DNA of 64,000 bases from the NCBI GenBank assembly GCA_958296125.1, contig OY282444.1, positions 186,001 through 250,000 on the forward strand, given 5' to 3'. Made by a program: the position numbers and the translations under genes. How positions within the stretch are numbered: position 1 is the stretch's first letter; each line of letters opens with the position of its first letter. This document shows, in pieces, positions 1,414 to 6,856 of the stretch. The notes beneath the pieces were generated by a model. The model did no database searches. It worked only from the letters and a program-made list of their open reading frames with translations, and was not told the origin of the DNA. The DNA is from an uncultured Poribacteria bacterium. Its GTDB lineage: Bacteria > Poribacteria > WGA-4E > PCPOR2b.

Positions 1414-2844
1414 TTAACTGCTTTCTAACTTCGCCCGCAGCTCCGCAACCGTCCCTGTCCCCTTCGCAGAATTGCAAGCCCCACACAATAGCCACAGGTT
1501 TTCAAAGTGATCTGTTCCCCCCTTACTGCGAGGGATTTTGTGATCAATCGTCAAATTCCGAAACGGGAAGAAAATCCCACAGCCCCCACACAACCCCTCC
1601 TGCAATCCAAACAGCGTGTGCTTATGAGTTCGAGCGGGCGGTATCTCCCCCATATCCGTCCGTTTTGGGTAGTCGTCGCGGTGGACAATCTCCGGGAATA
1701 AGCCTTGATCCGCTTTGATCCGCTTCACCACCAACTCCGCCGCCTTCGGTGAAATGTCAATCCCTACCCATGACCGCTGTAACCGGTCCGCCGCCACCAA
1801 TGTCGTAGCACACCCACAGAAAGGGTCAAACACGACATCGCCGGGGTTGCTACTCGCTTTGATGATACGTTCCAGAAGCGCGATAGGCTTCTGTGTGGGG
1901 TAGCCGGTGCGTTCCTTAGCATGTGCTCCAAGCTGATTAATGTCAACGATTATATCCTGTAGCAGACGACCCGGGCTGGCAGCCAAATATCGCTTGAGTC
2001 TTGGTATGGCTCCCCTATCGGGCCAATAAATCAACCCCGCCTCATCAAGGGCGTTTAGGCGATTATGTACACCTGATATTTGTCTGTAGTTTGGAATGAA
2101 ATGTTTTTCGATATATTCGGAATATGCGCCGGTAAGCGGCACAGCCCAATGCCTTCCAATATCCGTGGGGTCAACGTTACACCACGGTTGCCCAGACTCT
2201 CCTTCACTCGTTCCTGGACCGGTGAGATTATCAACACTATACCGTCCACGAGCGTCTTGATGACGGTAGTTTTTTTTAATGTAGTCTGGATCATGTGCTT
2301 CATGTTGCAAATTCCACGGCGCGCCCCTTCCCTTGACATAATAAAGGAGGGTATCGTGGATGCGCCCGAATCGACCAGGGTCGTTGTGTGCGGATGTCCG
2401 CTTCCAAATCACCTCATTCCGAAAGTTATCCTTTCCAAACACCGTATCCATTACCAACTTCAGATAATGGCTCGCTGTCGAATCACAGTGGAGGTAGATG
2501 CTGCCGGTATCTTTCAGAATACGGCTCATCTCCAGCAGGCGGATGGACATCATGATGAGGTAGCTCTGCATCCCCTTCCCATGCGCCTCTCGCGCTGCTT
2601 GTATCACGGTGTGCAGGGATGGGGCACCCTCGGCAAGTTCGCCATGTTCGGCGAGATCAACGTCGGAAAGTGTCCAAGTGTCTTTGAAGGCGGCACCGGC
2701 GGCTTTACTGCCGATGGGTGCGGCGTAGTTGCGGTTGGAATTGAATGGGGGATCGAGATAGATGAGATCGACGCTATCGCTATTCATCCCCCGCATGATA
2801 TGTAGGTTGTCACCGATGAAGAGGGTTTTGTCTTTCCAGTTCAT
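1414..2844 (-). CDS. DNA adenine/cytosine-N4 methyltransferase with C-terminal HNH domain
   Basis: 476 residues. The N-terminal 395 residues are a beta-class amino-methyltransferase (N6_N4_Mtase): catalytic motif IV LDPPFNSNR at residues 30-38 comes first, and the SAM-binding motif DPFCGCATT comes late (about residue 345), followed by WVGIDIS. A TRD-like central region separates them. Residues 405-476 form an HNH nuclease: CGGC, then DHKIPRSKGG, NLWLLCGACN and KG, with two Cys pairs that should bind zinc. Fusion of modification and cleavage modules in one chain suggests a single-protein restriction-modification enzyme, but target sequence and activity are unknown. The AlbA_2 fragment follows by 5 bases; a diverged paralogue lies at the window edge. 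Confidence 0.85.
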   Translation of the reverse strand: MNWKDKTLFIGDNLHIMRGMNSDSVDLIYLDPPFNSNRNYAAPIGSKAAGAAFKDTWTLSDVDLAEHGELAEGAPSLHTVIQAAREAHGKGMQSYLIMMSIRLLEMSRILKDTGSIYLHCDSTASHYLKLVMDTVFGKDNFRNEVIWKRTSAHNDPGRFGRIHDTLLYYVKGRGAPWNLQHEAHDPDYIKKNYRHQDARGRYSVDNLTGPGTSEGESGQPWCNVDPTDIGRHWAVPLTGAYSEYIEKHFIPNYRQISGVHNRLNALDEAGLIYWPDRGAIPRLKRYLAASPGRLLQDIIVDINQLGAHAKERTGYPTQKPIALLERIIKASSNPGDVVFDPFCGCATTLVAADRLQRSWVGIDISPKAAELVVKRIKADQGLFPEIVHRDDYPKRTDMGEIPPARTHKHTLFGLQEGLCGGCGIFFPFRNLTIDHKIPRSKGGTDHFENLWLLCGACNSAKGTGTVAELRAKLESS

Positions 2845-5312: not shown

Positions 5313-5909
5313 CTATTTTAGGCATGCCTGCACAATCTCCCGGTAAGTATCAATCACAGGTGTCTCTAAGCCCTTCACCTTGGCAAAGTCATCCCACCGC
5401 CGCAGTTGGAGCGCATCCTGATAATGCGGGATACGTTCAAACGCTGCCCTTTCTTCGTCCGACATGACCCCGCCCTGAAGCTGAAAACTCCTTTTCGATG
5501 CCTCGGATAAGCCATCATAGTATGATGCGTCGGTAGTGCACAAATACCGTTTCGCTGGCACATGCAGTCGAATCGGGGTTGTGACCGCTTCCGGGAAAAA
5601 TGGATCCAGATAATCTGCCCCGACCTCTTCGTGATTCTGATCTTCCTCCAAAAAGTCGTTCTCGGCATTGTGTTCGTCTAACAGAAAATGTCCGATGTCA
5701 TGTAAAAGCGCACTCGCAACCTGTGTGGTGCTTCCATCGTGCAGCAGTGCCTGATTCGCGCATTGACACGCATGTTCCAGTTGCGTTACGGACTCATCAT
5801 AGAACGATTGCCCCCTGCGTTCCATGTAATCCAACAGTGTGGCAACCTGCTCCGCTGCTGTCATGCCTGTCATCTGGTTCGCGAGCGTTTGATCAATCCG
5901 ATTGTTCAT
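5313..5909 (-). CDS. phnZ: HD-domain oxygenase, PhnZ-like (phosphonate C-P bond cleavage)
   Basis: 198 residues of the HDIG family found in phosphonate operons. PhnZ is a mixed-valence diiron oxygenase that splits 1-hydroxy-2-aminoethylphosphonate to glycine and phosphate; TmpB is a related enzyme. His46, His70-Asp71 (LLHDIGH), His93, His116 and Asp173/174 (WDD) reproduce the spacing of the PhnZ metal ligands as I recall them. Glu39 falls at the place of the PhnZ lid Glu; the lid Tyr position is Phe36, with Tyr37 beside it, so substrate preference may differ. The start overlaps the end of the PhyH gene by 17 bases, implying coupled translation. Substrate assignment is inference. Confidence 0.75.
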   Translation of the reverse strand: MNNRIDQTLANQMTGMTAAEQVATLLDYMERRGQSFYDESVTQLEHACQCANQALLHDGSTTQVASALLHDIGHFLLDEHNAENDFLEEDQNHEEVGADYLDPFFPEAVTTPIRLHVPAKRYLCTTDASYYDGLSEASKRSFQLQGGVMSDEERAAFERIPHYQDALQLRRWDDFAKVKGLETPVIDTYREIVQACLK

Positions 5910-6690
5910 GGTTCAGCACCGTCCTCCCCTGAAAATGCCCAATTTTGCTGATTTGACTTGCCTGTGTTGAACTATTTTTTGTGTGTTCCAAAAATGCCTG
6001 TCGTTTGTCCTCATAATACCGTTCCCGCCAATCGCCTTCGGAGCGGACGTTGTAGGTCACATAAATAATGCGTCGCGGTTGATTGGAACGGTTTACTCCA
6101 CTCTTGTGTGGGATATAAGACCCAAAAAGCAGGATGTCCCCCGGCTCTGTTGGCACCTCAACCCATTCCATCTCCGAAGCGACCTCCTCTGCAATACAAC
6201 CCTTTTCATCGGGCGCAATGAAGCCTTTCTGGTATTGCCCCGGTGAGAAAGAGAGGCAGCCGCTCTCCGGTGTTGCTGCGTCAACGGAGATTAAACAGGT
6301 AATATGGAATTTAACAAACTCGTAAGCGGGTGCGTCCTGATGTGCGGCGTAGCCACCACCGCCGGGGTATTTATAATTGATTTTCTCTTTGTAGAGGACT
6401 GCCGGTTCGCCCATCAATCCTGAAACAACGTCTAACACCTTTCCGCTTGTCAAGGTCTTTTTCAGACCTGCGTGGTATGGCACGAAATTTTCCGATCGGG
6501 AAAGCCGCGTCCCATCTGGCGTGGCTTCAAAATGGTGCATCCACTTGTCACGAATCGGTTTCCACTGCCCAATGTCGGTGACCCATTGTTGCAATGCCGT
6601 CACCTCTTCATCTGAGAAGAAGCCGGCAATCTTTAGGTAATTGTTATCTTTCCAATCTCTATGATGTGTCGGTTCTAGGTAATTTGACAT
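5893..6690 (-). CDS. phnY: Phytanoyl-CoA dioxygenase family protein, PhnY-like
   Basis: 265 residues, Fe(II)/2-oxoglutarate dioxygenase of the PhyH family. The facial triad is His117-x-Asp119 (AHQDAP) and His195 (IPHKSG), with Arg201 or Arg206/207 as likely 2-oxoglutarate anchor. ATG at 6690 has GAGGAGG 7 bases upstream. In known systems PhnY hydroxylates 2-aminoethylphosphonate at the carbon next to phosphorus, and PhnZ then cleaves the product. Here the PhnZ-like gene overlaps the 3' end, so the pair is probably one functional unit. PhyH proteins are numerous and varied, so without the neighbour the call would be only family level. Confidence 0.72.
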   Translation of the reverse strand: MSNYLEPTHHRDWKDNNYLKIAGFFSDEEVTALQQWVTDIGQWKPIRDKWMHHFEATPDGTRLSRSENFVPYHAGLKKTLTSGKVLDVVSGLMGEPAVLYKEKINYKYPGGGGYAAHQDAPAYEFVKFHITCLISVDAATPESGCLSFSPGQYQKGFIAPDEKGCIAEEVASEMEWVEVPTEPGDILLFGSYIPHKSGVNRSNQPRRIIYVTYNVRSEGDWRERYYEDKRQAFLEHTKNSSTQASQISKIGHFQGRTVLNHEQSD

Positions 6691-6856
6691 GGTTGACCTC
6701 CTCGCTGTTTGATTCGTTGATGAAGCGTCTGATTTTACCGTGGCGGCGGGGGCGAGCGTGTCTCGCCCAAATTTTGAGGAACGGTTCGATTAGCCCCCGC
6801 GCGCCCCTACACAAAATCCCGGAACAGCACATTAGTGTGACATACGAATGGATGCT
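6691..6856. repeat. Intergenic stretch with GC-rich repeat-like segments
   Basis: No gene seen. About 6731-6760 reads GGCGGCGGGGGCGAGCG then TCTCGCCC, and about 6792-6811 reads GCCCCCGCGCGCCCCTAC, giving G-rich and C-rich partners that can pair. This looks like a decayed REP-type element, but only one copy is in view. Confidence 0.35.

What the first reader, a model, noticed from the sequence alone, without database searches (positions are those of the whole stretch)
5313..6690. Overlapping PhnY/PhnZ-like genes for oxidative phosphonate cleavage
The PhyH gene has a His-x-Asp...His triad and the HD gene keeps the six metal ligands at PhnZ spacing, and the two overlap by 17 bases. Known PhnY/PhnZ and TmpA/TmpB pairs use phosphonates as a phosphate source. 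No transporter, regulator or phosphatase gene flanks this pair, and the Tyr of the PhnZ lid is Phe here, so the substrate may be new.
Basis: partly seen in the sequence, partly recalled or inferred. Interest (0 to 1): 0.6.

Follow-up and report, generated by a model that had tools for sequence, protein, structure and literature searches.

The report
Sponge-symbiont gene pair for methylphosphonate oxidation
Two overlapping genes in a bacterium of the sponge-associated Poribacteria closely match the two enzymes a marine planctomycete uses to burn methylphosphonate to formate and phosphate; it is a real but ordinary member of a known pathway, not a sign of a new substrate.

Summary
In detail: a PhyH-type 2-oxoglutarate oxygenase gene (5893-6690, -) and a PhnZ-type HD gene (5313-5909, -) overlap by 17 bases, with all metal ligands in place. 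The best explanation is the methylphosphonate pathway described from Gimesia maris: PhnY* hydroxylates methylphosphonate, and PhnZ1 splits the product into formate and phosphate. Both proteins score best against the two NCBIfam models built on that pair (345 and 274 bits, below their strict cut-offs of 500 and 300). They are 55% and 56% identical to a Gimesia-type pair and join it in well-supported clades that exclude PhnZ, TmpB and the genome's other PhyH proteins. In 59 relatives the pair is conserved: 43 have the PhyH gene, always next to the HD gene, while flanking genes change. The lid Tyr is not lost: Tyr37 is invariant (71 of 71 sequences) in a loop one residue shorter, and "Phe" is the variable neighbour. 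The Gimesia-type pair also lacks a flanking phosphonate transporter. A phnY-phnZ pair in Poribacteria was published in 2014 and assigned to 2-aminoethylphosphonate; the assignment to methylphosphonate is the modest news. No enzyme was assayed, so the substrate is inferred.

The parts
5893..6690 (-). phnY*-like gene: PhyH-family Fe(II)/2-oxoglutarate oxygenase, 265 aa; H117, D119, H195 metal triad, R206 likely 2OG ligand
   Evidence: ORF; Pfam PhyH; NF052437 345 bits; 55% identity to a Gimesia-type PhnY*; clade with it 99/95
5313..5909 (-). phnZ1-like gene: HD-domain (mixed-valent diiron type) oxygenase, 198 aa; ligands H46, H70, D71, H93, H116, D173
   Evidence: ORF; NF052439 273.6 bits; 56% identity to a Gimesia-type PhnZ1; clade 100/97; fold Z 24.9 to TmpB and PhnZ
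5893..5909 (-). 17-base overlap of the two reading frames, suggesting translational coupling
   Evidence: same 17 bases in most relatives
5793..5801 (-). lid Y37-D38-E39 (YxE, one residue shorter than the YxxE of PhnZ/TmpB)
6697..6702 (-). AGGAGG ribosome-binding site of the phnY*-like gene
   Evidence: sequence

Best explanation
A two-gene operon for using methylphosphonate as a phosphorus source in a Poribacterium. Step 1 (inferred): the PhyH enzyme (PhnY*), with Fe(II), O2 and 2-oxoglutarate, hydroxylates methylphosphonate to hydroxymethylphosphonate. Step 2 (inferred): the HD enzyme (PhnZ1), with a mixed-valent diiron centre and O2, cleaves the C-P bond to formate and inorganic phosphate; Tyr37 of a shortened lid probably guards the second iron until substrate binds. 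Shown here: the gene pair, its conserved adjacency, both clade placements, the fold of the HD protein, and conservation of ligands and phosphonate-pocket residues. Not shown: the substrate and any activity.
For: NF052437 (G. maris methylphosphonate hydroxylase) and NF052439 (its hydroxymethylphosphonate dioxygenase) are the best models, 345 and 273.6 bits; TmpB model only 158. In the own genome the next of 51 PhyH stretches scores 71 on NF052437. Trees: HD with Gimesia-type PhnZ1 100/97, apart from PhnZ, TmpB and the genome's other HD oxygenase; PhyH with Gimesia-type PhnY* 99/95, apart from other PhyH. Identities 55% and 56%. HD model (pLDDT 90) matches TmpB and PhnZ at Z 24.9, myo-inositol oxygenase at 11.3. 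43 of 59 relatives have PhnY*, all 43 with PhnZ1 adjacent. Published: GmPhnY* is specific for methylphosphonate, GmPhnZ cleaves HMP and (R)-HAEP (PMC10574752). No C-P lyase phnJ in the genome, pstSCAB-phoU present.
Against: Both proteins fall below the NCBIfam equivalog cut-offs (345 of 500; 273.6 of 300). No assay. No sequence of a proven AEP-type PhnY* could be put in the PhyH tree. No dedicated phosphonate importer was identified: the one strong PhnD-family protein in the genome fits the putative selenate-binding model best. No formate-tetrahydrofolate ligase was found, so the fate of formate is open.
Confidence: 0.7

Rival explanations
1. The pair degrades 2-aminoethylphosphonate (AEP), as PhnY*/PhnZ of HF130_AEPn_1 does, giving glycine and phosphate.
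For: Kamke et al. 2014 assigned poribacterial phnY-phnZ pairs to AEP from 40% identity (PMC3909097). AEP is common in marine invertebrates. The lid Glu that binds the amino group in PhnZ is kept as E39, and GmPhnZ cleaves (R)-HAEP too.
Against: Closer to the methylphosphonate pair (55-56%) than the 40% reported against the AEP enzyme; HD clade excludes PhnZ; PhnY* is the specificity step and GmPhnY* is methylphosphonate-specific.
Confidence: 0.15
2. The pair handles another small alkyl or hydroxyalkyl phosphonate not yet tested for this class.
For: Scores lie between the Gimesia-type set (400 bits and more) and other Phn-HD proteins (197 and less); some lineages keep the HD gene without PhnY*.
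Against: The segment around the H-x-D motif, LYKEKINYKYPGGGGYAxHQDAPAYEF, is identical to the Gimesia-type PhnY* except for the x; no neighbour gene points to another substrate.
Confidence: 0.12
3. Not a phosphonate system: a PhyH and an HD protein with another role such as small-molecule hydroxylation.
For: PhyH proteins are hugely expanded in this genome (51 stretches), most of unknown role.
Against: HD protein keeps every PhnZ metal ligand and the pocket residues H74, K120, S138, S141, R170; near-strict pairing across the order; fold match far above the non-phosphonate HD oxygenase.
Confidence: 0.03

Closest known systems
Gimesia maris PhnY*/PhnZ1 (methylphosphonate oxidation; NCBIfam NF052437/NF052439)
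   Same: gene order, overlapping genes, protein lengths, YxE lid length, 55% and 56% identity, shared clades, no flanking phosphonate transporter
   Different: below the equivalog cut-offs; overlap 17 bases rather than 4; residue before the lid Tyr is Phe here, Phe or Tyr there
PhnY*/PhnZ of HF130_AEPn_1 (AEP oxidation)
   Same: enzyme types, metal ligands, fold (Z 24.9)
   Different: lid loop one residue longer (YxxE); outside the PhnZ1 clade; HD about 35-37% identical
TmpA/TmpB of Leisingera caerulea
   Same: HD oxygenase fold and ligands (Z 24.9)
   Different: TmpB model 158 bits against cut-off 300; window partner is PhyH type (TmpA is not, from general knowledge); longer lid in TmpB
Poribacteria SAG 3G and 4E phnY-phnZ (Kamke et al. 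2014, PMC3909097)
   Same: same phylum, same kind of gene pair
   Different: assigned there to AEP, before the methylphosphonate pathway was known; sequences not compared here

Membership tests
Oxidative PhnY*/PhnZ-type phosphonate pathways (broad class) | PhyH/2OG oxygenase gene next to a PhnZ-type HD oxygenase gene | tested here: met
Oxidative PhnY*/PhnZ-type phosphonate pathways (broad class) | H...HD...H...H...D diiron ligands and lid Tyr and Glu | tested here: met
   H46, H70-D71, H93, H116, D173; Y37, E39; loop is YxE, not YxxE
Oxidative PhnY*/PhnZ-type phosphonate pathways (broad class) | fold of PhnZ/TmpB | tested here: met
   Z 24.9, next non-phosphonate oxygenase 11.3
G. maris-type PhnY*/PhnZ1 clade | HD and PhyH proteins group with Gimesia-type proteins | tested here: met
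NCBIfam equivalogs NF052437 / NF052439 | score over curated cut-offs 500 / 300 bits | tested here: not met
   345.2 and 273.6 bits; so not filed as these equivalogs
G. maris-type PhnY*/PhnZ1 clade | activity on methylphosphonate and hydroxymethylphosphonate | not testable with these tools
   needs assay
TIGR03276 Phn-HD | score over 214.6 bits | tested here: not met
   204.2 bits; a Gimesia-type PhnZ1 itself scores 201.0, so this cut-off does not discriminate
TmpA/TmpB | TmpB equivalog score over 300 bits | tested here: not met
   158.2 bits
Myo-inositol oxygenase | closest fold is MIOX | tested here: not met
   MIOX Z 11.3, PhnZ/TmpB Z 24.9

The most novel reading that the evidence does not exclude
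The shortened-lid (YxE) HD oxygenases form a functionally distinct branch that handles small alpha-hydroxyphosphonates from more than one source. In Poribacteria it is fed by PhnY*; in sponge-associated Latescibacterota and Gemmatimonadota, where the same HD gene stands without PhnY*, it acts on free hydroxymethylphosphonate or on the product of another oxygenase.
Probability: 0.2. Interest if true: 0.5.

Novelty: new member of a known kind. Interest (0 to 1): 0.25.

Why it matters
If right, an abundant group of sponge symbionts can take phosphorus from methylphosphonate without releasing methane. Methane from methylphosphonate through C-P lyase has been proposed for the sponge Aplysina aerophoba (PMC9999580); a formate-yielding route in Poribacteria would compete with it. 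It would also correct the 2014 assignment to AEP. It does not change enzymology.

Tried and rejected
The Gama 2019, TmpA/TmpB and PhnZ structure papers are not in the library, so lid and specificity facts come from reviews. 'Phe lid means new substrate' rejected. 'No transporter nearby means new function' rejected. A PhnCDE-like transporter at 1.69 Mb was considered as the importer and set aside, because its binding protein fits the putative selenate model at 375 bits, over its cut-off. No PhnY* relatives in viral contigs; one phage-record hit for the HD protein, not pursued. The PhyH structure model is only moderate (pLDDT 70) and was used for family-level fold only. PhnZ and TmpB are long branches that meet in the HD tree, so their placement relative to each other is not used. 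The genome-contig scan used FYDE as a search pattern, so those loci alone cannot prove lid conservation; the model-based searches, from which most of the lid exceptions came, were not so biased.

Full report
The observation. The upstream gene has a clear AGGAGG six bases before its start. On one side lie tRNA genes and serS; on the other a YdjM-family membrane protein and a phosphofructokinase. There is no transporter, regulator or phosphatase next to the pair.

Organism. The closest relatives with names are Candidatus Poribacteria metagenome-assembled genomes (90% identical HD protein). The window's genome is one 5.16 Mb contig.

Identity of the proteins. The HD protein scores 273.6 bits on NF052439 (hydroxymethylphosphonate dioxygenase PhnZ1, named for G. 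maris) against 204 on the general Phn-HD model and 158 on TmpB. The PhyH protein scores 345 on NF052437 (methylphosphonate hydroxylase) and nothing else above 23. Both lie below the equivalog cut-offs (300 and 500). Pairwise identities to a Gimesia-type pair are 56% over 182 residues and 55% over 244. The PhyH of one of them scores 560 on NF052437.

Phylogeny. In the HD tree the window protein sits in a 28-sequence clade (100/97) with Gimesia-type PhnZ1, other Poribacteria, Latescibacterota, Gemmatimonadota and some planctomycetes, apart from PhnZ, TmpB, other planctomycete Phn-HD proteins and the genome's second HD oxygenase. The PhyH tree gives the matching result: window, Poribacteria, Gimesia-type and two other planctomycete PhnY* plus an actinobacterial plasmid pair form a 99/95 clade, well away from the other PhyH proteins of these genomes. 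In the own genome the next best PhyH scores 71 on the PhnY* model.

Fold. The HD model (pLDDT 90, pTM 0.88) aligns to TmpB and PhnZ at Z 24.9 (rmsd 1.6-1.9) and to myo-inositol oxygenase at 11.3.

The lid. A review describes a YxxE loop whose Tyr binds the second iron until substrate displaces it (PMC8177086). Across 71 clade members, however, residue 37 is always Tyr and residue 36 is F (64), R (2), N (2), Y (2) or H (1). The distance from Tyr to His is 9 in all 71, 10 in 18 other Phn-HD proteins and in PhnZ and TmpB, and 11 in the genome's second copy. So a Tyr is kept and the loop is one residue shorter. That Tyr37 does the same job is inferred. Gimesia-type enzymes have FYDE or YYDE, so the lid is a mark of this clade and says nothing about a new substrate. 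The residues recalled as the PhnZ phosphonate pocket (H62, K108, S126, T129, R158; from memory) correspond to H74, K120, S138, S141, R170, all invariant in the clade.

Conservation of the unit. Of 59 related genomes, 46 have a PhnZ1-scoring HD gene (one of them split) and 43 have PhnY*. Every PhnY* genome has the HD gene beside it; the HD gene is without PhnY* in three (G011, G014, G036). The overlap is 17 bases in most, otherwise 8, 11 or 44. Outside the genus none of the window's flanking genes accompanies the pair, while the pair stays. The Gimesia-type pair likewise has no phosphonate transporter at its side.

Metabolic setting. No PhnJ, with E. coli as positive control; no PEP mutase over its cut-off (122 of 320 bits); pstSCAB-phoU present. 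The only strong PhnD-family protein fits the putative selenate-binding model best (375 bits), so the importer is unknown. No formate-tetrahydrofolate ligase.

Function. By published work, GmPhnY* is specific for methylphosphonate and its PhnZ cleaves HMP and (R)-HAEP, giving formate and phosphate from methylphosphonate (PMC10574752). Prochlorococcus MIT9301 shows the same chemistry in vivo (PMC6581173). Kamke et al. (PMC3909097) reported phnY-phnZ pairs in two poribacterial single-cell genomes and assigned them to AEP from 40% identity. The closer match to the methylphosphonate pair makes methylphosphonate the better reading. I found no paper in the library making that assignment for Poribacteria, which is a limited search.

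Verdict. Real, conserved, and a member of a known kind of pathway. Confidence in methylphosphonate as the main substrate is about 0.7, resting on homology alone.

Noticed in passing
L003:9466-12665 (own genome, G000:C1 about 1.992-1.996 Mb): A second Phn-HD oxygenase in a cluster glyoxalase-like, PhyH, Gfo/Idh dehydrogenase, HD; conserved in all five genus members examined, including two without the phnY*-phnZ1 pair. Its lid is one residue longer (YxxxE). It may be a different phosphonate route with a dehydrogenase.
   Followed up: partly
L098-L103, L104, L106, L108: PhnZ1-clade HD genes without a PhnY* ortholog found in the genome, in sponge-associated Latescibacterota and Gemmatimonadota (63% identical), two deep-branching Poribacteria and a Pirellulaceae genome. 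In the L099 locus a TauD-family dioxygenase gene lies about 2 kb upstream.
   Followed up: partly
own genome; L043, L050-L052, L059, L080, L096: Huge PhyH expansion (51 PhyH-like stretches in the own genome) and runs of PhyH genes shortly upstream of the pair in other Poribacteria.
   Followed up: no
L172:409-6531: PhnE-like two-domain permease, PhnC-like ATPase and a PhnD-family protein of the putative selenate type, with a Bmp-like lipoprotein and a restriction S-subunit-like gene between them.
   Followed up: partly
L152, L153 (Rhodococcus and Dietzia plasmids): PhnY*-like and PhnZ-like pair (41-43% and 48-50% identical) beside a methionine-synthase-II-like gene, another 2OG oxygenase and a YaaH-family transporter.
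   Followed up: no
L159 / L130 (planctomycete G328): PhnZ1-clade HD gene with only a fragment (about 92 residues) of PhnY* upstream, suggesting a frameshifted or decaying partner.
   Followed up: no
window 1414-2844: DNA N6/N4 methylase fused to an HNH endonuclease domain.
   Followed up: no
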